Positions 9,168 through 53,350 of a DNA stretch of 64,000 nucleotides are shown one piece after another; the stretch's first letter is position 1; the number at the start of each line of letters is the position of its first letter. This DNA comes from Haloferax sulfurifontis ATCC BAA-897 (GTDB taxonomy: Archaea > Halobacteriota > Halobacteria > Halobacteriales > Haloferacaceae): contig NZ_AOLM01000004.1 in the NCBI RefSeq assembly GCF_000337835.1, forward strand, positions 124,001 through 188,000, in the 5' to 3' direction. The notes below the pieces were generated by a model, which did no database searches, was not told the origin of the DNA, and saw only the letters and a list, made by a program, of their open reading frames with translations. Both the position numbers and the translations under genes were made by a program.

Positions 9168-9624
9168 GCGCCAGCACCTCCGCGAGCGCGACGAGGACGA
9201 GGAGCACGGCGGTGGTCGCACCGTAGCTCTTCGCGAGGAGCGAGCGCCCGGCACCCGCCGAACCGACTCGTCGGAGCCGGAACACGGCGAGCGTCCGGAC
9301 GAACGACCCGAGGACGAACGCGGTCACCGCGAGGAGCTTCACCGTCAGTATCGTTCCCCAGCGACCGCTCGGTCCGGGCGGGCCGAGCGCGCCGAGGTTG
9401 CCGACCCCGGTGACGACCATCGCGCCCATGGTCGCCCAGAAGACCCACTCGTACGTGACTGCGAGCGTGGCTGGTTCGCCGAGAGAGGCGGTCGAGCCGC
9501 CGGCGTCCGCGCGTCCGGGACCGGCGGCTCTGAGCGTCGCCCACGCGAACGCCGCGCCGCCGAAGACGAGCGCCATTCCGACGAGGTGGACGAGTCTGAC
9601 GAGGAGGGTGGTCGCGGCCGACAT
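9160..9624 (-). CDS. CopD-like four-helix membrane protein
   Basis: A 154-residue protein with four membrane helices: 'LVRLVHLVGMALVFGGAAFAW', 'EWVFWATMGAMVVTGVGNLGAL', 'TILTVKLLAVTAFVLGSFVRTL', and 'SYGATTAVLLVLVALAEVLA'. The conserved His in the first helix (RLVHLVG), the GxGN of helix two and 'KLLAV' of helix three match the copper-resistance D domain family, membrane proteins often linked to copper or haem redox. Its substrate is unknown. Start 9624 (MSAATTLL) is preferred; in-frame 9651 is possible. It is transcribed with the next gene, overlapping it by 8 bp. Confidence 0.68.
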   Translation of the reverse strand: MSAATTLLVRLVHLVGMALVFGGAAFAWATLRAAGPGRADAGGSTASLGEPATLAVTYEWVFWATMGAMVVTGVGNLGALGPPGPSGRWGTILTVKLLAVTAFVLGSFVRTLAVFRLRRVGSAGAGRSLLAKSYGATTAVLLVLVALAEVLARG

Positions 9625-9746
9625 GCGCGGGAGTCGTTCGCGGACTGACAAATATTCCCGGGCCGGGGGAGCGGTCGGGCGGCGGGCCGCCCCCCGAACC
9701 GCCGCCGCAAGCGAATCTTTTTGCGCCGCCCGCGCCGCCTCTCGGT

Positions 9747-10664
9747 ATGGTCTCGGAGATTTTCGACCCCGACCGCTGGGAGCCCGTCCCGGGGTCCGAC
9801 GAGTTCGACGATATCACCTACCACCGCGCCGTCGACGTGCCGGCGGTCCGCATCGCGTTCGACCGCCCCGAGGTCCGAAACGCCTTCCGGCCCGGAACCG
9901 TGGACGAACTCTACGCCGCGCTCGACGACGCCAGAAAGCGCGCGAACGTCGGGTGCGTCCTCCTGACGGGCAACGGCCCCTCCGAGAAGGACGGCGGCTG
10001 GGCGTTCTGTTCCGGCGGCGACCAGTCGGTCCGCGGCGGCTCGGGCTACGAGTACCGCGACGACGACGAGGCCGACGCCTCCGATGACCCGCTCGTCCGC
10101 GAGGCGAAGGCCGGTCGCCTGCACATCCTCGAAGTCCAGCGGCTCATCCGATTCATGCCGAAACCCGTCGTCGCCGTCGTGCCGGGGTGGGCCGTCGGCG
10201 GCGGCCACTCCCTGCACGTCGTCTGCGACATGACGCTCGCCTCCGAGGAGCACGCGAAGTTCCTCCAGACCGACCCCGACGTGGCCTCCTTCGACGGCGG
10301 CTTCGGCTCCGCGTACCTCGCAAAGCAGGTCGGCCAGAAGAAGGCCCGCGAGGTGTTCTTCATGGGCAAGACCTACTCCGCCGAGGAGGCGGTGGACATG
10401 GGCATGGCGAACGAGGCGATTCCCCACGAGGAACTGGAGGAGGTGGCGCTGGAGTGGGCCGACGAGATGACGAAGAAGTCGCCGACGGCCATGCGTATGC
10501 TGAAGTACGCCTTCAACATGACCGACGACGGCATGGTCGGCCAGCAGGTGTTCGCCGGCGAGGCGACCCGACTCGCCTACATGACCGAGGAGGCACAGGA
10601 GGGCCGCGACGCCTTCCTCGAAAAGCGCGAACCGCGCTTCCGCGACTACCCGTGGCACTACTGA
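9747..10664 (+). CDS. menB: MenB, 1,4-dihydroxy-2-naphthoyl-CoA synthase
   Basis: It closes the second ring of the quinone by Dieckmann cyclisation of o-succinylbenzoyl-CoA. The 305-residue crotonase-fold protein contains 'FDRPEVRNAFRPGTVDEL', the oxyanion-hole segment 'WAFCSGGDQSVRG', 'VPGWAVGGGHSLHVVCDMTLAS' and the MenB-specific 'QTDPDVASFDGGFGSAYLAKQVGQKKAREVFFMGKTYSA'. The 'KREPRFRDYPWHY' C-terminus is also diagnostic and separates it from ordinary enoyl-CoA hydratases. It is preceded by a short AT-containing tract (TCTTTTTG, 9716-9723). The menaquinone genes are clustered here but not in one operon. Confidence 0.95.
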   Translation: MVSEIFDPDRWEPVPGSDEFDDITYHRAVDVPAVRIAFDRPEVRNAFRPGTVDELYAALDDARKRANVGCVLLTGNGPSEKDGGWAFCSGGDQSVRGGSGYEYRDDDEADASDDPLVREAKAGRLHILEVQRLIRFMPKPVVAVVPGWAVGGGHSLHVVCDMTLASEEHAKFLQTDPDVASFDGGFGSAYLAKQVGQKKAREVFFMGKTYSAEEAVDMGMANEAIPHEELEEVALEWADEMTKKSPTAMRMLKYAFNMTDDGMVGQQVFAGEATRLAYMTEEAQEGRDAFLEKREPRFRDYPWHY

Positions 10665-10770
10665 GATAACGCCGGCTCGCCGCCCGATACCGGTCTCTCG
10701 CCCGCGATGCGGCCTCGTTTCGTTTCGTCTCGGCTCGTCTCCCGCGACGAAACGCGTCACCTCGCCATAG

Positions 10771-10822
10771 TTTAGGCACGCCGAAAAATAGGAACGCTCT
10801 TGTGTGTTTAGGGTAGCCTAAA
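10771..10822 (+). promoter_or_regulatory. two DtxR-type iron-box palindromes upstream of the lipoprotein gene
   Basis: TTTAGGGTAGCCTAAA at 10807-10822 is a palindrome with perfect six-base arms ending four bases before the ATG at 10827. TTTAGGCACGCCGAAA at 10771-10786 is the same motif with one arm mismatch; the site centres are 36 bp apart. The TTAGG/CCTAA arms match the recognition pattern of DtxR/IdeR-type metal repressors, known in haloarchaea as Idr/SirR/TroR. The AT-rich stretch between (GAAAAATA, 10783-10790) is a plausible TATA box, so a bound repressor would cover promoter and start codon. Expected outcome: expression only when iron (or manganese) is low. Confidence 0.75.
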
Positions 10823-10826
10823 TCCT

Positions 10827-12044
10827 ATGGACGAGAACTCCACCGGGAACGAGGGACTCACGCGACGCAACTACATTCGCTACGGCGGCACGGCGCTCGG
10901 GGCCGGGATGCTCGCCGGCTGTACGTCGGACTCGTCGGGAAGCGACGAGACGACAGCCGCGGCCGAGACGGCGACCGAAACGACCGCCGCGACCGAGACG
11001 GAATCGGAGACCGAGACCACCGAGGCCGACGCCTCGTACTCGGTGACGATGGAGCCGATGGGCGAGGTCACGTTCGACTCGGTTCCCGAGTCGTGGGCCG
11101 CCTACGACGGCGGCTACGCGGACATGGCCGTCGCGCTCGGCGTCGGCGACGGGGTGACCGGCGTCGGCGGCGCGGGCCGGTACTACACCTACGTCTACGA
11201 CGAGCTTCCCGGCGTGAGCGTCGACCGCGAGCAGATCGAGGCGTACCCCGAGGTCAGGACGAAAGAGGAGTTCTACGAACTCGACAACGACGTCCACCTC
11301 TACGACCCGAACATGCTCATCAACTGGTTCGACTGGGACCAAGAGGACGTGGACGAAATCGCGGAGAACGTCGCCCCGTTCGTCGGCAATCTCATCTTCC
11401 GCCGGTCCGACGGCTGGCACGACTACCGCTACTACACCCTCTACGAGGCGTTCGAGAAGGTCGCGCAGGTGTTCCAGCGCGAAGAGCGCTACGAGGCGTT
11501 CGCGGCGCTCCACGACGAGTTCATCGCGGAGATACAGTCGCGACTGCCGCCGGCGGACGAGCGTCCGAACGTCTTTCTCACCTACGAGGGGACGACCGAG
11601 CCCGAGACGTTCTCGCCGTACCGCCTCAACGACAAGGGCACGAGCAAAAAGCAGTGGAACGACCTCGGCGTCACCGACGCGCTCACCGGGACCGACATCG
11701 AGAACCTCAGCACGACCAACCGCGGCGAACTCGACTACGAGAACCTCCTCGAAGTCGACCCCGACGTGATGCTCGTTCGCGGCCACGAGCGCAAGACGGC
11801 CGCGGAGTTCCGCGACACCGTCCTCGCGTACATGGAGGACCACCCCGTCGGCGGCGAGCTGACGGCCGTCCAGAACGGCCGGGTCTACCGCGGCGGCTAC
11901 CTCAATCAGGGGCCGATTCACAACCTGTTTCTGACCGAGCGCGCCGCGAAGCAGATGTACCCCGAGGAGTTCGGCGAGGTGACCGGCGACGCCGAACTGT
12001 TCGACCGCCAGCGCGTCGCGGACGTCGTCACCGGGGAGTTCTGA
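10827..12044 (+). CDS. TAT lipoprotein, ABC-type ferric-siderophore binding protein
   Basis: A 405-residue extracellular substrate-binding protein. The N-terminus has a twin-arginine signal (RRNYIRYGG, Arg13-Arg14) and a lipobox LAGC with lipidated Cys32, then an acidic Thr/Glu-rich tether of about 40 residues, then the two-lobed FecB/FepB-like binding domain ('VPESWAAYDGGYADMAVALGVGDGVTGVGG' onward, 'VLAYMEDHPVGGELTAVQNGRVYRGGYLNQGPIHNLFLTERAAKQMYP' at the end). The paired iron boxes upstream support iron/siderophore uptake. No permease or ATPase gene adjoins it, so the transporter is encoded elsewhere. It is followed after one base by a flavoprotein gene. Confidence 0.86.
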   Translation: MDENSTGNEGLTRRNYIRYGGTALGAGMLAGCTSDSSGSDETTAAAETATETTAATETESETETTEADASYSVTMEPMGEVTFDSVPESWAAYDGGYADMAVALGVGDGVTGVGGAGRYYTYVYDELPGVSVDREQIEAYPEVRTKEEFYELDNDVHLYDPNMLINWFDWDQEDVDEIAENVAPFVGNLIFRRSDGWHDYRYYTLYEAFEKVAQVFQREERYEAFAALHDEFIAEIQSRLPPADERPNVFLTYEGTTEPETFSPYRLNDKGTSKKQWNDLGVTDALTGTDIENLSTTNRGELDYENLLEVDPDVMLVRGHERKTAAEFRDTVLAYMEDHPVGGELTAVQNGRVYRGGYLNQGPIHNLFLTERAAKQMYPEEFGEVTGDAELFDRQRVADVVTGEF

Positions 12045-12045
12045 G

Positions 12046-12999
12046 ATGGCGGACGCCGCGGCGTTCGACTACGACGTGGCCATCGTCGGCGGCGGACCGA
12101 CGGGCTGTTCGGCGGGCGTCTTCACCGGCCGGTACGGCCTCGACACCGTCGTCTTCGACCGCGGTCGGTCGTCGCTCCAGCGCTGTGCCTATCTGGAGAA
12201 CTACCTCGGCTTCCCCGGCGGCGTCGACATCGAGACGTTCTACGGGCTCATCCACGACCACGTCGAGGCGGCCGGCTGTGACCTCGTTTCAGACCTCGTC
12301 GAGGCGGTCGAACTCGTCGGGGACGACGAGACCGCGACCGCGGACGTCGCGGGGGATTCCGGCGGGGATGCCGCCGACGCGGCCGCCACCGGCCCCGGCT
12401 TCGCGGTCACGACCCAGAGCGGCGAGACCGTCACCGCGAGGCGGGTCGTCGCGGCCGCCCGCTACGGCGGCGACTTCCTCGAACCGCTCGGCGACGACGA
12501 GATGTTCGTCACCTACGAGTACGACGGCGAGACGCGGACGACGTTCGACCGCGACTACGCCGACGTTGAGGGGCGCACGCCGATCGACGGGCTGTACGTC
12601 GCCGCACCGGTGAGCGAGGTCAACGTGCAGGCCATCATGTCGGCCGGACAGGGCGCGCGAGTCGGCCGGTCGGCCATCACCGACCACCGCCTCGAACGGG
12701 GGTACCCCGAGGACCTCGCGCGCCACTGGGACTGGTTGCGCCCCGAGGCGGAACTCGCCGACGAGGCGGCCGCCCGCGACGACTGGCGCGAGCGGTTCGA
12801 CAGCCGCGTTCCCGACGACTGCGACCTCCCCGAGGAGCGACTCCGCGAACTCCGCGAGGCCGACGTGGAGCGCCAGCGCGAGATGTACGTCTCCGACGAG
12901 ACGGTCGAAAACCGAGCCGAGAAGGGTCGCGAGCGACTCGCCGAGCACCTCGGCGTCGCCGCCGACTCGGATTCGGCTTCCGACGCCGGTCCCGAGTAG
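12046..12999 (+). CDS. FAD-dependent oxidoreductase, thioredoxin-reductase-like
   Basis: A 317-residue protein with the dinucleotide-binding motif 'YDVAIVGGGPTGCSAGVFTGRYGLDTVVFDRG' at the N-terminus and a second flavin contact 'GLYVAAPVSEVNVQAIMSAGQGARVGRSA' near residue 185-210. It lacks the CxxC redox pair of true thioredoxin reductases and has a helical charged C-terminal extension. The ATG lies one base after the stop of the iron-regulated binding protein, so it shares that promoter. A role in reducing Fe(III) or releasing iron from an imported siderophore is a reasonable inference from the linkage, not shown by sequence. Confidence 0.78.
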   Translation: MADAAAFDYDVAIVGGGPTGCSAGVFTGRYGLDTVVFDRGRSSLQRCAYLENYLGFPGGVDIETFYGLIHDHVEAAGCDLVSDLVEAVELVGDDETATADVAGDSGGDAADAAATGPGFAVTTQSGETVTARRVVAAARYGGDFLEPLGDDEMFVTYEYDGETRTTFDRDYADVEGRTPIDGLYVAAPVSEVNVQAIMSAGQGARVGRSAITDHRLERGYPEDLARHWDWLRPEAELADEAAARDDWRERFDSRVPDDCDLPEERLRELREADVERQREMYVSDETVENRAEKGRERLAEHLGVAADSDSASDAGPE

Positions 13000-13172
13000 C
13001 GAGGAATCCCCGTCACCGGGTCGGCTGACGGCGATGACCACGTCGTCGCCGACGCCGGGGAGAACGCGCCTCGTCGGGGGCGGCGCGACCGCCGAGCCAC
13101 CGTGTTCTCCCACTCATCGCCTCGGGGTCGCGCGCTTTCGGATAGGAACTTACTCACTGCTCCGGCACTCGT

Positions 13173-39959: not shown

Positions 39960-40034
39960 GGGCGCTTAGCTCAGTCTGGACAGAGTGCTTGGCTTCGGAC
40001 CAAGTTGCCGTGGGTTCAAATCCTGCAGCGCCCA
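39960..40034 (+). tRNA. tRNA-Arg (anticodon TCG)
   Basis: A 7-bp acceptor stem pairs GGGCGCT (39960-39966) with AGCGCCC (40027-40033), discriminator A40034. The D arm is TAGCTCAGTCTGGACAGAGTGC. The anticodon stem CTTGG/CCAAG encloses CTTCGGA with anticodon TCG, and the T loop is GTGGG-TTCAAAT-CCTGC. No intron is present and CCA is not encoded. A change of gene content and composition begins right after its 3' end, and a tyrosine integrase lies 0.7 kb on, so this tRNA is the probable integration site of the element to its right. Confidence 0.95.
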
Positions 40035-40175
40035 TTCGTTTTCCGAACGATCTAGATTCAACAGACGGCGTAGACTTCCTTTTAAACAAGTCGCTCTTCG
40101 CGCGAAAGAGTCCGTTCCGATCCATCACGGGGGTCGTCGCCGTCATGCGATTCGCTAGCGCTAAAGTATCGGCGT

Positions 40176-40698: not shown

Positions 40699-42138
40699 CT
40701 ACTGAAAGAGAAGAGAGAGGTCCACAGCCAATGGACCCACAACCAGCACGAGATACGCAGCCATCCCTTTCGCCAGTCGTTCCGCACTTGGAACAGCGCC
40801 CTCATCAGCAGTCCAGTACTCAGTCCACTCCTGACCCAGCCGCGACCACACAGCCCCAACCGAAAATGCGGCTGCGCCCGTGATCGTCGCCGCCGCCATT
40901 CTGTTGCTGTCGTGGTCACCGTCGTAATAGTCCGACAGCCGTGTGTCAACCGTCTCCGCCCGGTAGTCTTCCGGTGGCGCATGTTCGCTTGGATCTACGC
41001 GGTGTGGGTCTTCGATGTCTGCAATCGTTGTCGCAGTCGTCACGGGCCGACCGTCCTCGAACTGGACGCGGTCGGAATCCCGCTTTATGTTACCAGGGAG
41101 ATCGTGTTTCCGGGGGTCGTAACTCAACTCGTCCACGTCAGGGAAGCCAGCGTACTTGAAAGGGAGCGACGCCTTGCGCGGATGGACAAGCTGAATCGGA
41201 GTGTCACGTTGCTCGTGGTGGCGGGTAAGCCGGACATCCCGGTCGAACCGAATTCCATCTGGCGTGATCGGCGCGAACGGCTCCCCCTGGAACGGGGTCG
41301 GGTTCATCACGACTGGATACCGATACCCAGGTTCGGCCGGCACGACCGGCGGCGCTTCGTCTTCCTTCCCGAGCAGCGAGTACACCTTGTGACTGGTAAT
41401 GCGACCACTCTGCCGCAGGTACCGGGCGGCAGTCTGGATATCCTGCCAACCCGCAAGATCACAGAGCATCTTCGGATCAACCGAGATGTCCGCAAGAAAC
41501 GTGAGACCAGTCGCCCGGAGCGGATGGGGGGACAGCTCATCAGGGTCCAAGCCGTTGGCGTTTTCTGCAGCTTTCGTAATCAGTCGGCTCACCGAGTACC
41601 GCTGGTGTTGAAGGCAGTCATTGTGGTCGAAAAAGGTCATCAGGCACGCAGTGATGCGCTCAGACCACCCGAATGGGACAGTGCGTGCTGACCGGTCGTA
41701 TTTGGGCTCCCAGCGCTCACTATAGAGGATGTCCTCAAGTGTCTCCGGCCGACAGTAGCTAGCCTTCTCAACGACGGTATCGCGGGCGTCTGCGTTCAGG
41801 TCTCGCCACTTGACGTCATCAGCCCACTCGCCCTTATCTTGTAGCTCCTTTAGTCCGCGGCGGCCCCAGATGTCGCGGGCAGTGAGCCAGCATCGTTTGC
41901 AGCCGCAGGGGTCATAGCTCGGGATCTTGATTTCGCCTCGCCGCCAGTCGATCCACTCCTCACGGAGGTGCTGGATCTCTTGGAGACGGAGACCTAGTCG
42001 CCCTGCGAGTAGGATGATGTAGCAGGCGGCGAGTCGCGCACTAGGATTCTTAATCTTGAGCGCACCCTGATAGAGTCTGAAATAGGCGTCGGTGTTGAGG
42101 GCTTTATCGGCCGATGGAAGAGCGTTTGGGTTCGTCAT
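40699..42138 (-). CDS. tyrosine recombinase/integrase with C-terminal membrane tail
   Basis: It should insert and excise the island at tRNA-Arg. The 479-residue protein has the catalytic set of phage-type integrases: Arg in 'AGRLGLRLQEIQHLREEW', the 'SPHPLRATGLTFLADI' box (H..R), 'LAGWQDIQTAARYLRQSG' with the nucleophile Tyr. A Cys-rich insert ('YDPCGCKRCWLTARDIWGRRG') may bind metal. The last about 230 residues are not recombinase-like and end with two hydrophobic segments ('MAAATITGAAAFSVGAVW' and 'GMAAYLVLVVGPLAVDLSLLF'), so the protein may be membrane-anchored. ATG 42138 is preferred over GTG 42144. Confidence 0.87.
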   Translation of the reverse strand: MTNPNALPSADKALNTDAYFRLYQGALKIKNPSARLAACYIILLAGRLGLRLQEIQHLREEWIDWRRGEIKIPSYDPCGCKRCWLTARDIWGRRGLKELQDKGEWADDVKWRDLNADARDTVVEKASYCRPETLEDILYSERWEPKYDRSARTVPFGWSERITACLMTFFDHNDCLQHQRYSVSRLITKAAENANGLDPDELSPHPLRATGLTFLADISVDPKMLCDLAGWQDIQTAARYLRQSGRITSHKVYSLLGKEDEAPPVVPAEPGYRYPVVMNPTPFQGEPFAPITPDGIRFDRDVRLTRHHEQRDTPIQLVHPRKASLPFKYAGFPDVDELSYDPRKHDLPGNIKRDSDRVQFEDGRPVTTATTIADIEDPHRVDPSEHAPPEDYRAETVDTRLSDYYDGDHDSNRMAAATITGAAAFSVGAVWSRLGQEWTEYWTADEGAVPSAERLAKGMAAYLVLVVGPLAVDLSLLFQ

Positions 42139-42201
42139 GCACACCTCATATGAGCGTTTGCGGTAAAAGGGTCAGCCGTGAGACAGGGACGTAACTGACA
42201 G

Positions 42202-45200
42202 CTACTGGCGAACCAGAGAGGCGAGTCTCCGTTCGACAATCTCTGACGGCCACGATGATTCGATTGTGTCACGCTCAACTCCGAAGGTCTCCACTGCCCG
42301 ATTCACGGTGGTTGTCGAGCATTCCTGTTGCTCGAAGAGGTACGAGTAGGCTGTCACCTGTAGCTCGTACCGACGTCTTGTCTCTGGCGTTTGGTTCGTC
42401 AGTGTAATCTTCACGTCGGAAACGTGCCGTTCGCCCGAATGTAACTCGACGACGAAGTCGCTCGTCCCGTGGATCTCGATCTCGACGTCGTCGATTGTCA
42501 CGAGTCCATCGACAGGTCTCTCGACGGCAACCCGGTCGGCCCGCTGAATCCGACTCCACAGGTCCGACGCTAGGAAGTCGTCCAATACCTCCTCTCTGAA
42601 GAAGTTGAACAGTCCGTCACGTTCGTCCTCGTCGATTCGCGGAGCGTGGTCATCCACGACGTCGTCGAACACGTGGCGAACTTCGCTCTCTGCCGAACGA
42701 AGTGTCTCTTCGGACATCTCGCGTTCGACGAGCGTGGTCAGAGCCTCGTGTAAGCAGGTGCCGACATCGTCCGGACCCAGTTCGTCGAACTGGAGAGGGA
42801 CATCGTCAGGAACGTCGTTAGCCTCTGTGTGCAGAGCTTTCCCGAGGAGGTGATTGAGAACCTGTGCGTCGGGGTCGTCCGTGAGTGGGTACATCGTACT
42901 TGGGTTGATGAACCGTGGAACCCACGGGTCAAGATCCGCGCGACGCGGTGGATTGACGGCAACGTCGTCGTTACGGGATGTGGATCTATTCGTCCACGTA
43001 GCGCGAAGCTCGACGTCGTTGACGCCGACGTCGAACGCTCCCGTCTCTGTATCGACCGTGTAGGACCCAGTCTGATCGCCGTTGAAGTTGAGTCCGTCCC
43101 GTATCGTGTCGAGCCACCGGTCACGAGGACGGGGTTCACCGGGTAGCGACCGTGGAAGCGGTACGACGAGGTGATCTCTCGCCCGCGTGAGCGCGACGTA
43201 CAGGAGTCGCCACGCCTCGGCTCGCTCGTTCGCCGCAACTCGCCTGAGGCGTTCGGGACCGACAAGTGACGTCGAGTCCGCGGACTCGGCGACGTCGTCG
43301 CACCAGTGACCCGTGGCCCACCGCAATCCGACGTCGCGGTCGCGCGTGTCCTCCGGGTCGTAGAGCCCGTTGACGAACGGTGGGAGCGAAGTGTCCGAGG
43401 GAATGTCGGTGTCGGTCGGGGGTGCGAGTCCGGCTATGTTCCCTTGAGTGATGAAGCGTTGGGCCTGTGGCCCGTGCTTCCAGAGGCCGAATCCGGGATT
43501 CGCAATCACGACGACGTCGTCTTGGTCGCCCTTCGCGTCGTGTATCGTGCGGAATTCGACGTCGTGACTCGTGTCTGCCGTACTCGGCTGGTTCGGCCCC
43601 ATGTAGGTATTTTCTCGAAATGGGGCGATCAGCTCAGTGAGTTCGAGGGGAGTGAAGTGCTCGTCCGCTTCCCACTCTTCTATGGTTTCTACGAGTGCAT
43701 CGAGGTTGGCGACTCGCTGTGCAGAATCGACGTCAAAGCATCTGTTGGGATCTGCTCGAAGGGCGAGTCTCTCGATGATGTCCTCGATATAGACTGCAGC
43801 GGGACGGGAGAGGAAGCTATCGCGCCGTTCGCGCAGTTCAGCGAGGCCATCGAGTAGGTGCTGGTGAGAATCCGACAGATTGCAGTCGTCGAGAACCGCG
43901 TCGATGTCCCAACGATGGGTTTCGAAGTTGCTTGCAAGTGGTTCGAGACCGAGGTTCGACTCGGTGACGAGGTTGCGGGTTCGCTCTGGGTCAGCAGGCG
44001 CGACCAGCCATTCACAGACATCGAGAACTGCGTCCACGACGTCACACTCAAAGAGATCTTCGCTCGCGTTTCGAACGCTGAGTCCCATCTCCTCGAACGC
44101 CTCTTCGTAGGCGTCCATCTTCGACGACCATCTGAACAGAACCGTAATTCCGAGAGGCTCTCCGCCGTCGTCGGTGAACGTCCCATCCGCGAGTCCCTTC
44201 GAGACCAGTGTCGCTAACGTCGTCGCTTCGCCACGGCCTTCGACAGGTTTGACCCACGTGTAGGAATCGGGGTCAGAAGCCAGAGGGTCGAAGGACGCGA
44301 TGTGGACACTCGATTCGTCGGTCGAATCTCGATCCGCTTCGAGCCCAGGGTATCGGACGTCCAACTCTCCAATGTTCCCACGTGCTGGATCGGTGAGAGC
44401 CGTCTCAGAGATTTCGTTGATCGCACTGGCTATGTCGGGGACGCACCGGTACGTGGTCTTCGCGGTCCGGTGCTCGTGGACGTCCCAGTCGATCCCGAGG
44501 TATTCTCCTTCGACCGTCGCCGTCTCGAAGAGAGTTGGTTCCGCGTGCCTCCACAAGTAGACGCTCTGGAGCAGGTCACCGGCACCCAACACACGCGTAG
44601 TGGGTGTAACTAAGTGTGAGAGGGCAGCGTGCTGTATCGACGAGACGTCTTGCGCTTCGTCGATGATCAAGCTCTGCACCCGCGTATGGTACCGCTGTCT
44701 GATCCGGGTACGGTGCGCGTCATCGACGTCGTCGAGGCGGTCGTCGAAGTAGGCGTCCACGAGATAAGCGACGTCCGTATGCGACACGACTCCGAGGTCA
44801 CGGATGGTCTGCCGGTACGTTCGCCGGTACTCTTCAAGTACAACACAGAGGTCATCGATGCGTGCGCTCCAGTCGTCGTGGAGCGCCGAATCTGCCTCAT
44901 AGATCTTCTCTCGGTCGTCCTCGTCGATATCGTCGTAGGCACTCTCGTCAACGTCTGCTCCGACACAGCGATTAGCCGCGGCGACGACGTCGTCGAACGC
45001 TTTCGGGCGACCATCCGCGTACACGTCTTCGAAGGTCTGTTCCAGTTCAGTTCGGAACTCGTCTGTAGAGATCCGACGGTCCCGGCAATGTGCGACGGCT
45101 GTCTCAAGCATTTCGCTCACGTCGTCGTCGAATTCGGCATCGGGATAGGCATCCTCCAGCCGTTCCAGCCGCCGCGCCAAGTTCGAATCGTTCTGGATAG

Positions 45201-45678
45201 CCCGGTAACATACAGCGTGCAGGTGTTTCTGTCGAGCCGCGTTCCCGACGACAGGCATCTCTTGGAAGCCGATATCGTGTGCGATCTCACTCAACACATC
45301 TCGAAGAATACTGTCGATGGTGCCGACATACGGGGCACGTCTGATCCGTTGGACCAAGAGTTCCACCTCCTCAACTGAGACTTGGTCCGCGGCAGGGACG
45401 AGGTCGTGTTCGACTATCTCTCGAAGACGGTCACAGATCTCCGGGATGATACCCGACGCTTCACTCCTGTTGAAGGAGATGACTGCGACTCGCTGTTCGG
45501 GAGTCGCGTCCCCCTCAGCGTACCGGCGGAGAATGTCTTCTGCGGCGATGTGGTTCGTGACTTCAGATTTACCTGCCCCCGGGACACAGTTGAGTGTATA
45601 CAACCCGGAATCGTGTCGGAAGTACGCGTCCCGAATTGCTCGCTGTGCGTTCTGGAGGCGGATCGGACCGTCACTCAC
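42202..45678 (-). CDS. AddA/RecB-like UvrD-family helicase with PD-(D/E)XK nuclease
   Basis: A 1158-residue superfamily-1 helicase-nuclease. The helicase has Walker A 'NCVPGAGKSEVTNHI' near residue 30, motif II 'SLIIDEAQDVSSIQH', 'GAGDLLQSVYLWR', 'RTIHDAKGDQDDVVVIANP' and motif VI 'LLYVALTRARDHLVVPL'. The nuclease domain fills the last 250 residues: 'GTCLHEALTTLVEREM', 'EIHGTSDFVVELHSGERHVSDVKI' (Asp, then DxK) and the 'YELQVTAYSYL' QxxxY motif, complete as in AddA/RecB. The GTG start overlaps the upstream gene by 8 bp. Last gene of a five-gene operon. It would unwind and degrade linear DNA. Confidence 0.87.
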   Translation of the reverse strand: MSDGPIRLQNAQRAIRDAYFRHDSGLYTLNCVPGAGKSEVTNHIAAEDILRRYAEGDATPEQRVAVISFNRSEASGIIPEICDRLREIVEHDLVPAADQVSVEEVELLVQRIRRAPYVGTIDSILRDVLSEIAHDIGFQEMPVVGNAARQKHLHAVCYRAIQNDSNLARRLERLEDAYPDAEFDDDVSEMLETAVAHCRDRRISTDEFRTELEQTFEDVYADGRPKAFDDVVAAANRCVGADVDESAYDDIDEDDREKIYEADSALHDDWSARIDDLCVVLEEYRRTYRQTIRDLGVVSHTDVAYLVDAYFDDRLDDVDDAHRTRIRQRYHTRVQSLIIDEAQDVSSIQHAALSHLVTPTTRVLGAGDLLQSVYLWRHAEPTLFETATVEGEYLGIDWDVHEHRTAKTTYRCVPDIASAINEISETALTDPARGNIGELDVRYPGLEADRDSTDESSVHIASFDPLASDPDSYTWVKPVEGRGEATTLATLVSKGLADGTFTDDGGEPLGITVLFRWSSKMDAYEEAFEEMGLSVRNASEDLFECDVVDAVLDVCEWLVAPADPERTRNLVTESNLGLEPLASNFETHRWDIDAVLDDCNLSDSHQHLLDGLAELRERRDSFLSRPAAVYIEDIIERLALRADPNRCFDVDSAQRVANLDALVETIEEWEADEHFTPLELTELIAPFRENTYMGPNQPSTADTSHDVEFRTIHDAKGDQDDVVVIANPGFGLWKHGPQAQRFITQGNIAGLAPPTDTDIPSDTSLPPFVNGLYDPEDTRDRDVGLRWATGHWCDDVAESADSTSLVGPERLRRVAANERAEAWRLLYVALTRARDHLVVPLPRSLPGEPRPRDRWLDTIRDGLNFNGDQTGSYTVDTETGAFDVGVNDVELRATWTNRSTSRNDDVAVNPPRRADLDPWVPRFINPSTMYPLTDDPDAQVLNHLLGKALHTEANDVPDDVPLQFDELGPDDVGTCLHEALTTLVEREMSEETLRSAESEVRHVFDDVVDDHAPRIDEDERDGLFNFFREEVLDDFLASDLWSRIQRADRVAVERPVDGLVTIDDVEIEIHGTSDFVVELHSGERHVSDVKITLTNQTPETRRRYELQVTAYSYLFEQQECSTTTVNRAVETFGVERDTIESSWPSEIVERRLASLVRQ

Positions 45679-46909
45679 CGCCGGTCACCTCGTTGTCGAG
45701 CATTGCTCGAACGACGTCCGGAAGTTCGCGTTCGGGGCTCAACAACCGCTTCTGCTCAGCATCAGGAACGACGTCCGTCTCCAGATGCTCTATTAGAGGA
45801 GATGGACGACGTTCCTCACCAGCCAGGTTTTCGATGTGACGGGTGACGATTAATCCCTCCCCGGCAGCTCTCAGAACATCGTCGAACTGATCTCGGTCCC
45901 GACCAGTCGTCCAAGCGGTTCGCGGCGCGAGCGTTCCAACACGACTGTCTCCGCGGAGGATCTCTTCCTGGAGTTCTGGGGGGATGACACTCTCAGTTTG
46001 CTTCGGCCACTCGCCATCGACCAATCCAACGGTAATGACGTACGGGACGTCCAACAGCCACACGTCGTTCGCTTCGAGGATATCTACTGCACGTGCGTTC
46101 GAGTGTTCCCTTCGACCGGGGCGTTGTGTTGCGATTAGCTGGGCAAGCTCTGCGACGCTACTCCACGACCGGTCAAGGGTTCCTTCGTCGAGTCGATCTG
46201 CGTACTTGTGACGCAATTGCTGGACGAGGGTTTTGACGCGAACGACCGCCCGTGCGTCACGCTCTGTCTCGATGAGAGCCGGCGAATCGTTCGCTTTCGT
46301 CACCGGAAGGCCGTGTTCCTCGTACATTTCGACGACGTCAGTAAGGACGTCAGTCACTGCCGCCGGCGTCGGTTCCGGGCATTCTCCAAGCCACTCGACG
46401 TACGTCACGAGACGTTCGTCAGCTTCCGGGTTCTCTTCGAGTTCGTCGTGCCACTCTCCAAGCGTCCGTGGTCCATCGGGCAACGCCTGCATCGACACTT
46501 GAACCCCTCCTGGGTCGATTGGCCACGACGGCGACGTCGCCGACGCAGGACACCAGCGGTGTTCGAGCGGCCGGCACAGGGTCTCCCGAGATGGTTCCCT
46601 GGTGCCAAGCACGTCGCACACCGACTCGATGAGTGCGTATGGACGCGTCTGCGTCACCCGGAGCTGAACCCAGAATACGGGCGTAATACCGTACTGCACA
46701 GCTGCGCGGTAGAGCGACTCTTCGTACTGGTCCAAATTACGTGCGACGACGGCGACGTCGCGTACGGGAACACCGACATCCCGGAGGCCAGCTACGGTCG
46801 CCATCACTGTTCGAGCCTCCTCGCGGCGCGTCGTCGTCGCCAACTCTGCAACGGGAACATCGGCGTCGTCGAGTGGCTCCACGAGGGAAAGGCGATCTGT
46901 GGATGTCAC
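45671..46909 (-). CDS. RecC/AddB-like protein, C-terminal half
   Basis: 412 residues from GTG 46909. 'DDADVPVAELATTTRREEARTVMATVAGLRDVGVPVRDVAVVARNLDQYEESLYRAAVQYGITPVFW' matches the region of inactivated UvrD-like helicases (RecC, AddB) that handles the second motor domain, and 'VWLLDVPYVITVGLVDGEWPKQ' is the characteristic 'GL.dGeWP' element. The start GTG is part of GTGA shared with the stop of the upstream gene, so the two halves are translated together. There is no PD-(D/E)XK nuclease motif. It is either a split subunit or one gene broken by a one-base shift. Confidence 0.7.
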   Translation of the reverse strand: MTSTDRLSLVEPLDDADVPVAELATTTRREEARTVMATVAGLRDVGVPVRDVAVVARNLDQYEESLYRAAVQYGITPVFWVQLRVTQTRPYALIESVCDVLGTREPSRETLCRPLEHRWCPASATSPSWPIDPGGVQVSMQALPDGPRTLGEWHDELEENPEADERLVTYVEWLGECPEPTPAAVTDVLTDVVEMYEEHGLPVTKANDSPALIETERDARAVVRVKTLVQQLRHKYADRLDEGTLDRSWSSVAELAQLIATQRPGRREHSNARAVDILEANDVWLLDVPYVITVGLVDGEWPKQTESVIPPELQEEILRGDSRVGTLAPRTAWTTGRDRDQFDDVLRAAGEGLIVTRHIENLAGEERRPSPLIEHLETDVVPDAEQKRLLSPERELPDVVRAMLDNEVTGGE

Positions 46910-47703
46910 GGATCGAACACCACCGCTCCCGGTTCGGCGACGTCGAATAGTTGCGGTACTCGCCGGGAGAGATACGATCCTGTCCCACGTCGGAAATGGA
47001 TGTGGACAGACACAGACACGGAGTTCAGTACGGCGTGCAAGAGGTCGATGTGTGCCGCGGGGACGCTGCTGACGCCGACGAGCGAAACACAGTCCACCTC
47101 TGGGAACGCTTCGTGCCAAACCTTTCCGTCGGTGGCGAGGATATTCCTCGCCGCGCGGCGGACGAACTCCACCTCAGAGATCGACTTCGACGTACGCTGG
47201 CGGAGTGCTCGTTCGATGCCTGTCGCAGCACTCAGGATTTCAGCTGCGTCCGCGTCAATCGGCGCTGTGAGCCCATCTGCGACGTCCCGGAATATTCCGA
47301 GTCGTTCTGGGTGGAATCCGGTCACGTTCTCGATCTCTGTCCGAACCTGTTCGACGGTCTGTGGATCCGAAGGCACGGCAGGAGATGTGATCGGCATCTC
47401 GTCTTCAGATAGTACGGATCGAATCATCGACAGGCGGTCGATGCGGTCAATTGTCGTCGTCGGAAGACCTGCAGCGTCGAGGATTCGTTCCCCGACCTCT
47501 GAAGGGTCGGCAAACTGTAAGCCGTCTTTTGGCGTCTGTGACTCTCGGAGTCTCCGCTGGATGTTGCGTCGGTGTAACTCCACGGGAGCCAGGACTAACT
47601 CCGTCTGATTCCACAAATTGTCTGCACGCTCAAGTAAGGCTTCTTCGTGCCCAACGTGGAGAGTCAGATTCCGAGGGAGTTGTTCCTGGAGTGTCTTAGC
47701 CAT
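46906..47703 (-). CDS. RecC/AddB-like protein, N-terminal half
   Basis: 265 residues ('MAKTLQEQLPRNLTLHVGHEEALLERADNLWNQTELVLAPVELHRRNIQRRLRES' to 'GTGSYLSRRVPQLFDVAEPGAVVFDP'). The pattern of a deteriorated helicase 1A domain without a Walker lysine, followed by a helical 1B part, continues smoothly into the next gene. The frame ends at TGA 46908-46906. The in-frame ATG at 47793 would lengthen it by 30 residues; 47703 is preferred for its clean N-terminus. It forms an operon with the HTH genes upstream. Confidence 0.68.
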   Translation of the reverse strand: MAKTLQEQLPRNLTLHVGHEEALLERADNLWNQTELVLAPVELHRRNIQRRLRESQTPKDGLQFADPSEVGERILDAAGLPTTTIDRIDRLSMIRSVLSEDEMPITSPAVPSDPQTVEQVRTEIENVTGFHPERLGIFRDVADGLTAPIDADAAEILSAATGIERALRQRTSKSISEVEFVRRAARNILATDGKVWHEAFPEVDCVSLVGVSSVPAAHIDLLHAVLNSVSVSVHIHFRRGTGSYLSRRVPQLFDVAEPGAVVFDP

Positions 47704-47801
47704 GGGTGTGTCACAGTCTGTGGCGGAGGTGTGGCCGAGATGTACGATCTCGCTACTCACCGCATCCTCGTCACGTATTGTTAAAGCAATCATCGGTCAC
47801 T

Positions 47802-48188
47802 TTAACTATCTGATTCTACCGATTCCTCCGCAGGAGTGTAACACTCGGTCGTAATGCGGCGGATCTGTCGTGCGAGCGGGTTCGTTGCATCTGTCGGCTT
47901 AACCTGTTTCGAGCGGTCGTCGTACTGCGCAACTCCGAGTTCGTCGAGTGTCTCCAGATGAACCTGTGTCAACCCGATGTAGACGCGGGTACGCTGTTCA
48001 CCCGTGACTCGACTCGGATCGACGGCGTTCTCACGCGCAGCGATTTCGACGGCGAGTTCACCAACAGAAACAGAGTCCTCTGACCGAGAGAGTGAGAGAA
48101 TTACCCTTCTTCGTCTGCTGTTCGAGAGTGCGTCGAAGACGTCGGCCGGGTCCAACGGGATCGCGTGATCACATTCGACGTCGGTCAT
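47802..48188 (-). CDS. winged-helix regulator (ArsR/DUF7344-like)
   Basis: 128 residues starting MTDVECDHAIPLDPADVFDALSNSRRRRVILSLSRSEDSVSVGELAVEIAARENAV. The 'ALSNSRRRRVILSLS' helix and 'SVSVGELAVEIAAREN' are the opening of a winged helix common in haloarchaeal regulators; 'RVYIGLTQVHLETLDELGVAQYDDRSKQV' is the recognition helix and wing. Its ATG shares one base with the stop of the upstream HTH gene, and the AddB-like gene follows after 98 bp. It probably controls the operon. Confidence 0.78.
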   Translation of the reverse strand: MTDVECDHAIPLDPADVFDALSNSRRRRVILSLSRSEDSVSVGELAVEIAARENAVDPSRVTGEQRTRVYIGLTQVHLETLDELGVAQYDDRSKQVKPTDATNPLARQIRRITTECYTPAEESVESDS

Positions 48189-48490
48189 CACATTCCCTCC
48201 TGAGCAAGCCACTCTCCACGAGTCGTGAGCAAGACCACCTGTCGATCCAGCTCTCCAATGAGGTCTGCGTACCCTTCAGATTCGAGTTGATGGAGAAGTT
48301 CGTCGATCTCAGTCAGGAGGAGTCCGGTCTCTACAGCGAGGTCCTGACGTGTCGTTGCGCCGGCGGCATCGTACGCACACCTGGCGATTCGTACTAGTTC
48401 TGGGTCGTGGGCCGAGGGGTGAATTCTGTCCTTCGCCGACTGAGAGACAGAGTTTTCACTGTCGGCACTACTACTTTCGTTTGCTGTCAT
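48188..48490 (-). CDS. small winged-helix / MarR-like HTH protein
   Basis: A 100-residue protein with a disordered Ser-rich N-terminus and the HTH 'ELVRIARCAYDAAGATTRQDLAVETGLLLTEIDELLHQLESEGYADLIGELDRQVVLLTTRGEWLAQEGM', a typical helix-turn-helix-wing with 'LTTRGEW' in the wing. The stop overlaps the next ATG by one base (TGATG). First gene of the AddA/AddB operon, with a TATA-like tract at 48561-48570, so the leader is about 50 nt. Two HTH proteins in tandem imply sensing or autoregulation of the nuclease. Confidence 0.78.
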   Translation of the reverse strand: MTANESSSADSENSVSQSAKDRIHPSAHDPELVRIARCAYDAAGATTRQDLAVETGLLLTEIDELLHQLESEGYADLIGELDRQVVLLTTRGEWLAQEGM

Positions 48491-48560
48491 TGTCGGCAGC
48501 TTAGTCTCCGGTGTACACGCACCGGGGGCGATTTCGCGCCACCTGTGGCTACTTACTAGA

Positions 48561-48570
48561 GTATAAAAGA
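48561..48570 (-). promoter_or_regulatory. TATA box for the HTH-AddB-AddA operon
   Basis: On the minus strand the sequence is TCTTTTATAC, inside the AT-rich 48548-48590 block. It is about 75 bp before the first gene, so transcription would begin near 48540. The palindromic GGTGTACACGCACC stretch around 48509-48523, downstream of that start, could be an operator or a leader hairpin. Confidence 0.45.
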
Positions 48571-48697
48571 TATTTGTATTCTTAGCAAGCGTTTGGGTAG
48601 ATAGGCTCTATGAAGGCTCCACCGCTGGAATCCGACGTGGAGTTTAGAAAGCGATTAGAGTAGTGCCTTCAGGGAGACGAAGTTCTGCGGAACGGCG

Positions 48698-49267: not shown

Positions 49268-52200
49268 ATGCGAAACGGGGATACTGAACCGGAACACTAT
49301 GTCTCACGTCCGGAAATTGAGGAACAGCTATTCGCATTCATTGATGACGAAGTAGACCTGCTACATATCGCTGGGGAGCCGGGCGTAGGAAAGACATGGA
49401 CGATAGAGAAGATCGACCGGGCGTACAGCGGTAGCAAGGATGTTGAAATCGTTTCTATCGGAGGCCATCTTGATGTGGAAGACTTCTATCGCAAAATCTA
49501 TCGAAGCATCCTCGACAACCTGCCCGAAGAAAAGAAAGAGGAAGGTAGGCGACTAACCGGCGTCGGCGTAGCTCCAGTTGGTAGTCTTTCATGGGATGCC
49601 GAATCGGCCGACGCACCTCAAGTACAGCTCAAGTATCGAGACGTACTCGAAGGAGTCGCCGAACTTTACCCCGAAGATCAGCACCTTCTACTCTGTATCG
49701 ACGATATTCACAAACTCAGCATCGAAGAGGATCCGATCAGGGATGCTGTTCGAGAGGCAGCCGACCTACTTACAGAGAATATCACTCTGATTACTGCCGG
49801 ACAGCTCTCGTTCGACCGATTAGACACCGAAGTAAACATCTCCACCTTCACGGAGCAACAGACCACATCTCTGCTTCAGGACGAGTTCAAGTATCTCCCT
49901 GAAGAGGAGGCAGCGGAGATACACCAGGAATTGGGCGGTCATCCGCTCTATATCGGATTACTCATCGAAGCCAACGACCCCGACGAAATACCGGAAATAC
50001 CGAAGGGAGAGGTGTACGATGAGATCCAGCAGCGGTATCTCCACTCACTTTCAGCGGACGAACAACGGTTCCTCCGACTCACATCTCCACTCCCCGAACT
50101 CAACGAACGCCTCTGTAACGCGGTCATTCCCAACGACGAATCGTTCGACAGCGTCAGCATCGACCGCCTACTCCGAGGACTCAGCGAGCGAGTAATCACC
50201 CAAGACTTCGGATGGAACGAGAACAGTATCAAATCCTACCGGATTCACGATACATTCCGCGAATTCCTCCAGAAACGGCTCAACCCGTCGAAGGAAGCAC
50301 AGGTTCGTCGAAACGCATTCCGATACTACAGTGAGCGAATCCATTCACTCCTCAGCACCAGCGACGTAGATCTAAACACGGAAGTGGATCTCGTCTTCTC
50401 CTGTCTTAACCACCTCTCAAAAGACATCGAAACCGAAGAACATCAGGAACTCCGTCAGCTCATCAAATCTGGATTCGACCAAGACGGACTATCGTACTAC
50501 CCTGCATCCCTTCTGACAGAGGAACTCAAGACATGGCGCACCGAGGAACTACCCGACGACACTGTAAACGCGCTAATCAGCACGCTCGATCAACGTGAAG
50601 AAATTGCAAGAGCCTTCTATGACGAGAACACACACCCGAGTTGGGGTGAAGAACTCCTCCACCGAGATTTATTCAACGAGCCGGACGGCTATCTCCTCGG
50701 ATATCAAAACCAGATTGTCAACGACCAACCCGACTTCATCCTCCAAGTCATCCAATCAACCACAACAGAAAGCCCCAATACGCGACGATTCTTCGTCAAC
50801 ATCGCCACAGAACTACCTCCGGAAACAGCTGCAAAAACCACGTCAATTGTCGCAGACTGGATTCGCACAACCGGGGACGTACACGCTTTCGAATACCAGG
50901 GCCTCCAGCTGGTCGAATATCTGTGTAACCACGGTGAAACCGAGGCTGCGCTCGAAGTCCTCGAAGCAATCCTCCACCCCAAGCAGCGAGATATCGAGGA
51001 GGAACGACAGCAGGAACGCCGATTTGAACGATACAGCACCATCGAAACCCTCGACGATACCTTCGACCAGTTCGTTACGGAAGCCGGCGAGGACTTTATC
51101 CAAGTGCTTGAGGACACCCTCCGAGAGACACTCCAGTCAGAACAGGACGAAGAAGGGACGATTCACCACGAATCAGTTGCCGACCAAAAGCCGATCAAGG
51201 ACCTCGATTACGACGAAACCAACAGGGGCAAACGGAAGCACATCATCTACACCTACCTCTCACGCGCCGCCACCCACTGGGTAGACGAGAACCCAACCGA
51301 CGCAGACCGGAAACAGCTGATTCAGAACTATCTGGACGACGAAAATCCGAATTTCCGACGACTCGGACTCTTCCTACTGAGCAAGCATCCTAAAGCCATC
51401 ACCGACCGTACCAGATCAGAGCTTCTCGAAGAAGAAAACTACTATCAAGGGGATGTCCAGTTCGAGTTCTATCGACTGCTAGAGAACGGCTTCCAGCACC
51501 TGTCTGCGGATGATCAGGGACAAATCTGCCAGTTGATTCGCAACGGACCCCCGGACAGCGAAGGAATGGAACAACGAGCAGAATATTTAGCCGAACAAAG
51601 TGGAGAACCCGTCGAAGAAGTCAAACAGCGGATTATCGAGAAGTGGCACCGAAATCGGCTCTACCTCATCGAAAACCACCTCCCCCAGAATCATCACGAG
51701 TATCTGGAGCACAGCCTCGACAAACACGGCCAACCAGAACGCCTACCGACAGAGCCGTATACTCCAGATGTCCGCGGGGGAATGGTCGCACAGAAAGAAC
51801 CTGACGAACTCAGCCAGATACCCGGCGACTCGGCTGTAGAAGTCCTCAAGTTCTTAGCCGAATGGGAACCCTCCGAAGAGGAGAAATGGGAACCACAGGG
51901 CGAAGGCGGTTTCGAAGAGGTCAGCTATCACGGTGTCTCGGACGAACTCGAAGACCGCATCCAGGAACATCCACAGGAATATGCGGCCGAAATCACGCTC
52001 CTGAAAGACGCCAAACCACAGTACGCCGACATCGCTCTCCGCGCATTTCGAGACGCTCTCGATGACGACCGAACCTTCCCTTGGAGTCCTGTACTGGAGC
52101 TATGTGAGTATATCGTAGAGCATCCTGAAGGATGGAGTGACCGCTGCCGGTTCGATATAGCAACCCTGACATATAATGCGATAGTCTTAGATGCAACCGA

Positions 52201-53350
52201 CTTCCCAACCGGCCACGTAGACCGCACTAAGCAGTTACTCCTGAACCTGGTCGTTGAGATAGATATCAACCCTGACGACCAGCCCCTGAGCTGGATCGGT
52301 GGCGTCGGAACAACTCAGGAAGAAGTACGAGGGCGAGCCGTTGAAGCAATAGTAATGCTCGCCGTGTGGCAGCACGACGAGGAAGATAAGTCAACGTTGG
52401 ACGGGGAAATCAGGGAGGCCATCCGGACGAAACTCAGCTCTGATACCGACTTAGAAGTTCGGACGGCTCTGGGCCGTCAGTTCGGCAACCTCTGGGCCTT
52501 AGACGAAGAACTGGTTAAAGAAGGCCTCGATGATCTGTTCCCGACCGGTGACAGTCTGGATGCGAAACAACGGTTTTCCAGAGCGTTCAATGGCTATCTA
52601 TCCCGGCACGGATGCCACGCACCCGCGTACAATTTCATTCGACCATACTACATCCATGCCGTCAGCCTCGTGACTGAGGAAGACTCCGAGCAAGAGTTCG
52701 TCAACGCAGATGGTCTTGCCGGCCACATCGGAGCCTCGTATATCTTCCAAAACGAAGCCCTGGACGATGACGACAGCCTGATCAGGCGATATTATAAACA
52801 GAGTTCGCCAGAACTAGCCGCGAAAATCGCTGATGCGATCTCACGTACAATCGAAAATGGAGACGCTCTGGATGGTGAATGGGAGCAGGTTAGTCTGCTC
52901 TGGAGATGGAGACTCCACCAGGTCGAACAGGACATCCAGAGCCCCGAAGAGGAAGAAGACTATCGGCGTGAATTCCACCGTTTCTTCGACTGCCTGAAAA
53001 ACACCGATGAGTCAGGGCTTCCTGAAGAACAGGAGCTACTCGAACGCTCCGTCCGGTTCATCATCCACGACTCGTTCGGCGTCCGTTCCTTGGAGGAATG
53101 GTTGGCCGACCAGTCCGACGAGCACCCTCAAGAAGCAATCACGGTGTACGAGCAGGTTATCGAACCCTCATCCCCCGCGAAATGGCCGGAAATAGTTCGG
53201 TCGAGTCAGGACGAACACCGCGAGCAACTGTATACGAACGCCGTCGAACACAATAATTCAGCATGTAACACCGCGGTCAGGATAGCTAATCAGTTCGCAG
53301 CACAGGGCCAAGAGTATGATCGAGACTTCCTTGACGACCAACTTCGATAA
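49268..53350 (+). CDS. giant STAND-type NTPase (candidate antiviral sensor)
   Basis: A 1360-residue protein with no N-terminal effector: the ATPase begins at once. Walker A is GEPGVGKT (36-43), Walker B is LLLCIDD (140-146), a sensor segment 'ITLITAGQLSFDR' follows near 175, and 'QELGGHPLYIGLLIEAN' (the GxP motif of STAND proteins) near 222, then a winged helix ending 'SYRIHDTFREFLQKRL' near 330. The remaining roughly 1000 residues are mostly acidic helices in repeated pairs, as in an alpha-solenoid sensor. STAND proteins of this build include the Avs antiviral family. TATA-like CAATATCTATT (49238-49248) predicts a leaderless start. The DNA is much AT-richer than the core. Confidence 0.82.
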   Translation: MRNGDTEPEHYVSRPEIEEQLFAFIDDEVDLLHIAGEPGVGKTWTIEKIDRAYSGSKDVEIVSIGGHLDVEDFYRKIYRSILDNLPEEKKEEGRRLTGVGVAPVGSLSWDAESADAPQVQLKYRDVLEGVAELYPEDQHLLLCIDDIHKLSIEEDPIRDAVREAADLLTENITLITAGQLSFDRLDTEVNISTFTEQQTTSLLQDEFKYLPEEEAAEIHQELGGHPLYIGLLIEANDPDEIPEIPKGEVYDEIQQRYLHSLSADEQRFLRLTSPLPELNERLCNAVIPNDESFDSVSIDRLLRGLSERVITQDFGWNENSIKSYRIHDTFREFLQKRLNPSKEAQVRRNAFRYYSERIHSLLSTSDVDLNTEVDLVFSCLNHLSKDIETEEHQELRQLIKSGFDQDGLSYYPASLLTEELKTWRTEELPDDTVNALISTLDQREEIARAFYDENTHPSWGEELLHRDLFNEPDGYLLGYQNQIVNDQPDFILQVIQSTTTESPNTRRFFVNIATELPPETAAKTTSIVADWIRTTGDVHAFEYQGLQLVEYLCNHGETEAALEVLEAILHPKQRDIEEERQQERRFERYSTIETLDDTFDQFVTEAGEDFIQVLEDTLRETLQSEQDEEGTIHHESVADQKPIKDLDYDETNRGKRKHIIYTYLSRAATHWVDENPTDADRKQLIQNYLDDENPNFRRLGLFLLSKHPKAITDRTRSELLEEENYYQGDVQFEFYRLLENGFQHLSADDQGQICQLIRNGPPDSEGMEQRAEYLAEQSGEPVEEVKQRIIEKWHRNRLYLIENHLPQNHHEYLEHSLDKHGQPERLPTEPYTPDVRGGMVAQKEPDELSQIPGDSAVEVLKFLAEWEPSEEEKWEPQGEGGFEEVSYHGVSDELEDRIQEHPQEYAAEITLLKDAKPQYADIALRAFRDALDDDRTFPWSPVLELCEYIVEHPEGWSDRCRFDIATLTYNAIVLDATDFPTGHVDRTKQLLLNLVVEIDINPDDQPLSWIGGVGTTQEEVRGRAVEAIVMLAVWQHDEEDKSTLDGEIREAIRTKLSSDTDLEVRTALGRQFGNLWALDEELVKEGLDDLFPTGDSLDAKQRFSRAFNGYLSRHGCHAPAYNFIRPYYIHAVSLVTEEDSEQEFVNADGLAGHIGASYIFQNEALDDDDSLIRRYYKQSSPELAAKIADAISRTIENGDALDGEWEQVSLLWRWRLHQVEQDIQSPEEEEDYRREFHRFFDCLKNTDESGLPEEQELLERSVRFIIHDSFGVRSLEEWLADQSDEHPQEAITVYEQVIEPSSPAKWPEIVRSSQDEHREQLYTNAVEHNNSACNTAVRIANQFAAQGQEYDRDFLDDQLR

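What the first reader, a model, noticed from the sequence alone, without database searches (positions are those of the whole stretch)
42202..48490. Five-gene operon: two HTH regulators, split AddB-like subunit and AddA-like helicase-nuclease in a mobile island
All five genes are tightly spaced, with overlaps of 1, 4 and 8 bp at three of the junctions. AddAB/RecBCD are housekeeping in bacteria and haloarchaea normally rely on Mre11-Rad50/HerA-NurA, so a complete helicase-nuclease with its own regulators on an integrated element is unexpected. It could degrade invading linear DNA, act as an anti-restriction or recombination engine of the element, or form a new defence system.
Basis: partly seen in the sequence, partly recalled or inferred. 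Interest (0 to 1): 0.7.

Follow-up and report, generated by a model that had tools for sequence, protein, structure and literature searches.

The report
Split AddAB-like DNA-shredding enzyme in haloarchaea
A mobile stretch of DNA in a salt-loving archaeon carries a stripped-down version of the bacterial AddAB machine that unwinds and cuts DNA from its ends, with one subunit divided in two and its own regulators, probably used to destroy or process broken and incoming DNA.

Summary
The five-gene operon is real, with the stated overlaps (1, 4, 8 bp). It lies in a 50,699-bp element inserted at a tRNA-Arg gene and bounded by a 14-bp repeat. Gene A is an AddA relative: best PDB match B. subtilis AddA (E 1.6e-46), ATPase and nuclease residues invariant in 67 of 67 homologues. 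The next two genes are one AddB-like subunit divided at the start of its second helicase-like lobe; BC is homologous to AddB lobe 2, BN is assigned by position only. The split is no error: 35 of 65 B-bearing loci have it, 34 with the same (A/G)TGA overlap, and both halves are under purifying selection (dN/dS 0.11-0.20 where measurable). The AddB nuclease domain is missing. The system is patchy (73 of 391 class genomes; 2 of 14 congeners), up to 84% identical across families, found on plasmids, not in phages. In 11 loci two HTH genes follow a conserved promoter with an inverted repeat, a pattern found nowhere else in 391 genomes. Most likely a DNA-end-dependent helicase-nuclease acting on incoming or broken DNA. 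Defence fits this island, but neighbours of 17 related loci show no defence enrichment.

The parts
39960..40034 (+). tRNA-Arg(TCG), integration target; the 14-bp att core is 40022-40035
   Evidence: ARAGORN; homology of 7 of 7 congener genomes stops at 40035; 14-bp repeat at both ends
40699..42144 (-). tyrosine integrase of the element
   Evidence: PF00589 E 1.3e-9
42202..45678 (-). A: AddA-like SF1A helicase with C-terminal RecB-type PD-(D/E)XK nuclease, 1158 aa
   Evidence: Pfam UvrD-helicase E 1e-15, PDDEXK_1 E 1e-8; profile best PDB match AddA 3u44_A E 1.6e-46; catalytic residues invariant in 67 of 67 homologues
45671..46909 (-). BC: AddB lobe 2 (2A/2B), 412 aa, GTG start overlapping the BN stop by 4 bp
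   Evidence: hhalign to bacterial AddB profile E 8e-14 over 325 columns; model residues 82-264 match AddB 3u44_B at Z 12.2
46906..47793 (-). BN: N-terminal half of the AddB-like subunit, presumed lobe 1, no P-loop, 295 aa
   Evidence: in one chain with BC in 30 of 65 loci; no P-loop in 35 of 35 split loci; homology to AddB lobe 1 not shown
47802..48188 (-). HTH2, DUF7344/ArsR-like winged-helix regulator
   Evidence: PF24035 E 9.3e-23; NF033788 E 5.9e-4
48188..48490 (-).
   Evidence: no Pfam or NCBIfam match; homologues in 12 loci
48478..48582 (-). conserved promoter/leader: TATA-like box 48562-48568 and inverted repeat CCGGTG-N6-CACCGG 48508-48525
   Evidence: same region in 11 loci; pattern in 10 of 391 genomes, 11 places, all at this operon

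Best explanation
An accessory, mobile helicase-nuclease derived from AddAB. A is the only motor and the only nuclease: it binds a free double-stranded DNA end, moves 3'-5' along one strand, and its C-terminal nuclease cuts the unwound DNA. BN and BC together make the non-motor partner that holds and splits the duplex, as AddB and RecC do; they are made from overlapping cistrons by coupled translation and presumably reassemble. Since the AddB nuclease is gone, one nuclease must serve, as in RecBCD. The HTH pair binds the inverted repeat at its own promoter and keeps the operon low until needed. Net effect: destruction or resection of linear DNA (injected viral genomes, taken-up DNA, cleavage products of the restriction systems in the same island). 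Shown by sequence: families of A and BC, intact active sites, the split and overlap, selection, transfer, conserved promoter. Inferred: assembly, direction, single-nuclease action, regulation, biological target.
For: AddA identity; motifs invariant in 67 of 67; AddB lobe 2 by profile and fold; B upstream of A in 65 of 67 loci where the upstream region is present; (A/G)TGA overlap in 34 of 35 split loci; dN/dS 0.116-0.183 for BN, BC and A between the window and L002, L128, L129, 0.109-0.141 for BC and A against L125 and L126 (BN saturated there), 0.138-0.198 between L125 and L126. Patchy and transferred, on plasmids, in a defence-rich island. Operon-specific promoter. Precedent: loss of AddAB in Thermus thermophilus raises natural transformation by about three orders of magnitude (PMC9751324, abstract and passages; PMC11143384, abstract and passages).
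Against: Neighbours of 17 related loci carry no more PADLOC families than same-contig controls (62 vs 57 families). BN has no detectable similarity to AddB lobe 1 (hhalign E 0.38) and its model is unusable (pLDDT 38.8). Two loci carry A without a detectable B. No biochemical evidence exists here.
Confidence: 0.55

Rival explanations
1. A recombination and repair engine of plasmids and islands: it resects broken ends (perhaps at Chi-like sites) to make 3' tails for RadA and serves replicon maintenance or spread, not destruction.
For: Found on large haloarchaeal plasmids and near ordinary metabolic genes; no defence enrichment around 17 copies; bacterial AddAB does both jobs (recalled).
Against: Absent from 318 of 391 genomes and 12 of 14 congeners, so not needed for routine repair; I noticed no constant recombination partner in the seven annotated plasmid neighbourhoods.
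Confidence: 0.3
2. A stand-alone ancillary UvrD-nuclease of the UvrD-Cas4 type described in defence contexts (PMC5704561, passages read), the small genes being unrelated.
For: A scores on Cas4, PDDEXK and GajB models.
Against: Best solved relative is AddA, 161.8 bits against 90.3 for AdnB and 56.7 for RecB; Fe-S-type cysteines absent in 53 of 53 split and short loci; BC is AddB-like.
Confidence: 0.08
3. The split AddB is a frameshift, an assembly error or a decaying gene.
For: A one-chain form exists in 30 of 65 loci.
Against: 34 of 35 split loci have the same overlap over a range of 32-100% identity of A; low dN/dS in both halves.
Confidence: 0.02

Closest known systems
Bacillus subtilis AddAB (3u44, 4cej)
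   Same: AddA-type helicase and nuclease (E 1.6e-46); AddB-type lobe 2 (Z 12.2); adjacent genes
   Different: no AddB nuclease domain, AddB in two cistrons in 35 of 65 loci, accessory and mobile, own HTH genes in some loci, archaeal host
RecBCD
   Same: one nuclease in the motor subunit; partner related to RecC (1w36_C Z 10.1)
   Different: partner much shorter; no RecD gene in the operon
Full-length haloarchaeal AddAB relatives (L008, L162-L172; found here)
   Same: same gene pair; A keeps four Fe-S-type cysteines (12 of 12)
   Different: B is about 1,090-1,160 aa from the BN domain start, with a C-terminal Cys-rich domain in which I saw no D-x-K; A is 23-27% identical to the window's
UvrD-Cas4 fusions (PMC5704561)
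   Same: SF1 helicase fused to a PD-(D/E)XK nuclease, also in archaea, defence-linked
   Different: no AddB partner mentioned in the passages read; Cas4-like nuclease
Gabija GajB
   Same: UvrD-type helicase; PADLOC GajB models match A up to E 6e-15
   Different: no GajA-like gene in the operon; A has its own nuclease

Membership tests
AddAB | AddA SF1A helicase motifs intact | tested here: met
   GxGK[ST], DExQD, K716, R832 in 67 of 67
AddAB | AddA C-terminal RecB-type nuclease site | tested here: met
   H977, D1074, (D/E)1088-x-K1090, Q1107, Y1111 in 67 of 67; that these are the catalytic positions is recalled from RecB
AddAB | AddB helicase-like lobe 2 | tested here: met
   hhalign E 8e-14; AddB chains are the top four of 988 chains aligned, Z 11.5-12.2 (the tool warns that Z under about 13 can be weak for helical folds)
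AddAB | AddB helicase-like lobe 1 | tested here: inconclusive
   hhalign E 0.38; poor model
AddAB | AddB C-terminal Fe-S nuclease domain | tested here: not met
   B ends after lobe 2 in 53 of 65 loci including the window
AddAB | AddB as one chain | tested here: not met
   split in 35 of 65 loci including the window
AddAB | NCBI equivalog cut-offs | tested here: not met
   53.8 bits vs cut-off 707.65 (AddA); 13.8 vs 903.7 (AddB)
AddAB | DNA-end-dependent, Chi-regulated resection | not testable with these tools
   needs biochemistry
Gabija | GajA partner | tested here: not met
   no GajA match among the 8 proteins of and around the operon scanned against PADLOC at E 0.1
UvrD-Cas4 fusion | Cas4-like Fe-S cysteines in the nuclease | tested here: not met
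   0 of 53 split and short loci have the aligned cysteines

The most novel reading that the evidence does not exclude
A horizontally moving archaeal defence system built on AddAB: a single-nuclease DNA shredder whose DNA-holding subunit was cut in two at a lobe boundary, whose N-terminal half can be exchanged independently (window vs L125: BN 62%, BC 78%, A 84%), and which is switched by a dedicated HTH pair from an operon-specific promoter.
Probability: 0.35. Interest if true: 0.75.

Novelty: new variant of a known kind. Interest (0 to 1): 0.6.

Why it matters
Archaeal end resection is discussed in terms of Mre11-Rad50 and HerA-NurA, with RecBCD/AddAB as the bacterial route (PMC12977600, PMC9960219; passages read). 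About one in five haloarchaeal genomes sampled here holds a mobile AddAB relative whose partner gene is annotated 'hypothetical protein'. It makes testable whether an AddAB-type machine works without the AddB nuclease and with AddB in two pieces, and whether it limits DNA entry in hosts with working genetics (Haloferax, Haloarcula).

Tried and rejected
Viral origin: no phage record matches A; 36 IMG/VR loci match only 43 to 455 residues of A at 21-49% identity. Defence by neighbourhood: tested with controls and negative (17 of 31 fetched locus pairs were scanned because of the residue limit, genes of 250 aa or more only, and only 25 families per search are listed). AddB lobe 1 identity of BN: not established. 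Nuclease identity of the C-terminal domain of full-length B: PDDEXK_1 E 0.085, hhalign E 0.032; suggestive cysteines only. RNA structure in the leader: the repeat arms are nearly invariant, so no covariation; Rfam gives nothing above threshold. The genome-contig scan was too unspecific; only L009 and L010 proved close relatives. Literature: I saw no archaeal AddAB in the listings, which cover open-licence PMC papers only; DUF7344 with 'haloarchaea' gave no paper. In one search the 73 genomes count any match at E 1e-10, broken or partial copies included (e.g. G296 with stops). Distinct A homologues that matched only UvrD motifs (e.g. rows H18-H23) were not treated as members.

Full report
Observation. 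The ORFs and overlaps are as described. HTH2 most likely starts at 48188, which gives the 1-bp overlap. The operon ends 57 bp from the integrase gene (42144 to 42202), whose far end lies about 660 bp inside the element. Homology to seven of seven congener genomes ends at window 40035. Following the contig past the window, the 14-mer CCTGCAGCGCCCAT recurs at C4:214735, where homology to same-species genome G189 resumes; G189 carries a different insert of about 11.5 kb between two copies of the same 14-mer. The element is therefore 50,699 bp, GC 0.552 against 0.69 outside.

What the proteins are. An 8-row profile of A finds B. subtilis AddA best in the PDB (161.8 bits), ahead of AdnB (90.3) and RecB (56.7). 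In 67 aligned homologues (L180 left out: it begins at a contig end) the ATPase residues and the nuclease residues H977, D1074, D/E1088, K1090, Q1107 and Y1111 never fail. A profile of four B proteins has one significant PDB match, AddB (E 6.8e-4), at the start of lobe 2. BC compared with six bacterial AddB-like proteins gives hhalign probability 98.1, E 8e-14 over 325 columns (the six were gathered locally from one AddB that Pfam confirms). The AlphaFold model of BC is only partly confident (mean pLDDT 58.1), but its good part, residues 82-264, matches AddB chains first (Z 11.5-12.2), then Rep (10.1), RecC (10.1) and PcrA/UvrD. Foldseek alone gave nothing below E 0.001; its top two hits were AdnA and AddB. 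BN has no demonstrable homologue in AddB; its role rests on lying in front of BC in one chain in 30 of 65 loci.

Three architectures. Of 68 loci (window, 7 plasmid records, 60 genome regions), 65 have BN and BC. Twelve have a full-length B of roughly 1,100 aa, 18 a one-chain short B, 35 a split B. In 34 of 35 split loci the BC start overlaps the BN stop as ATGA or GTGA; L155 has CTGA. In a tree of A rooted on the full-length group, the short group is one clade (support 100) and the split group needs 3 changes; counting split against one chain, parsimony gives 2 changes (quick search, rooted on a long branch). One fission and one refusion, or repeated fissions, are both possible. The full-length group keeps four Fe-S-type cysteines in A in 12 of 12; the split and short groups have none of the four aligned cysteines, 0 of 53. 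In the alignment of 12 full-length B proteins I saw no D-x-K nuclease motif (by eye), so the nuclease of B may have been dead before it was lost; this is inference.

Selection. Nei-Gojobori dN/dS between the window and L002, L128 and L129 is 0.117-0.183 for BN, 0.116-0.173 for BC and 0.129-0.159 for A. Against L125-L127, BN is only 62% identical while BC is 77-78% and A 82-84%, and BN synonymous sites are saturated against L125 and L126: recombination has probably exchanged the 5' part of the operon.

Distribution. 73 of 391 class genomes match A at E 1e-10, in 32 of 86 genera; within the genus 2 of 14 others do, and the same-species genome does not; copies at 79-84% identity lie in four other families. 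23 plasmid records match, 16 over at least 80% of A. No match in 50,697 phage records. A search of 392 phylum genomes with the B profile hit 18, all within the same order. The full-length B was found in 11 of 391 class genomes over its whole length.

Regulation. HTH1 and HTH2 are both present in 11 of 68 loci; one more locus has HTH1 alone (L149) and one HTH2 in two pieces and no HTH1 (L002). Some relatives hold extra genes between HTH2 and BN: a Cys-rich small protein and an HNH protein (PF01844 E 0.0015, below its cut-off); the window lacks them. Upstream of HTH1 all 11 loci share a TATA-like box and CCGGTG-N6/7-CACCGG. This composite pattern occurs 11 times in 10 of 391 genomes, always at this operon, with no hit for the reversed control. 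The simplest reading is an operator for the HTH pair; binding is untested.

Defence or repair. The island also encodes a Dsr1-like protein (E 4.1e-37), a GmrSD-type restriction enzyme, a TmtA-like protein and DUF1156/DUF499/SNF2 genes resembling Hma components. But flanks of 17 other copies match 62 PADLOC families against 57 in 17 same-contig control regions (89 and 98 proteins), and most of those families are redundant models of a few proteins. Thermus thermophilus offers a precedent for AddAB as a barrier to incoming DNA. I favour destruction of linear foreign DNA, with repair possible as a side or main role; the choice between these is open.

Verdict. A real, conserved, under-annotated archaeal derivative of AddAB. 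By its anatomy it should work like AddAB, but it fails two structural criteria of the bacterial family, so it is filed as a new variant and not as a member.

Noticed in passing
window 49268-53350: 1360-aa STAND-type ATPase matching PADLOC Dsr1 over residues 504-1354, with an AAA ATPase at its N-terminal end.
   Followed up: no
G000:C4:187001-208000 (L227, start of L228), beyond the window: The same element carries GmrSD, TmtA-like, DUF1156 methyltransferase, DUF499 and SNF2 helicase genes: a defence island.
   Followed up: partly
window 48478-48582: Conserved promoter/leader with inverted repeat, found only at this operon in 391 genomes.
   Followed up: partly
L134:6569-7871, L138, L141: Extra genes (Cys-rich small protein, HNH protein) inside the operon of relatives.
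   Followed up: partly
L160, L178: A genes without any detectable B upstream.
   Followed up: no
G078:C2:99488-99817: Fragment of B with two internal stops in a congener, probably a relic of a lost copy.
   Followed up: no
L125-L127 vs window 46906-47793: BN far more diverged than BC and A, as if the 5' part of the operon had been exchanged.
   Followed up: partly
L229 (G189), reverse strand 1515-13048: The same-species genome has another insert of about 11.5 kb at the same tRNA-Arg site between the same 14-bp repeats.
   Followed up: no
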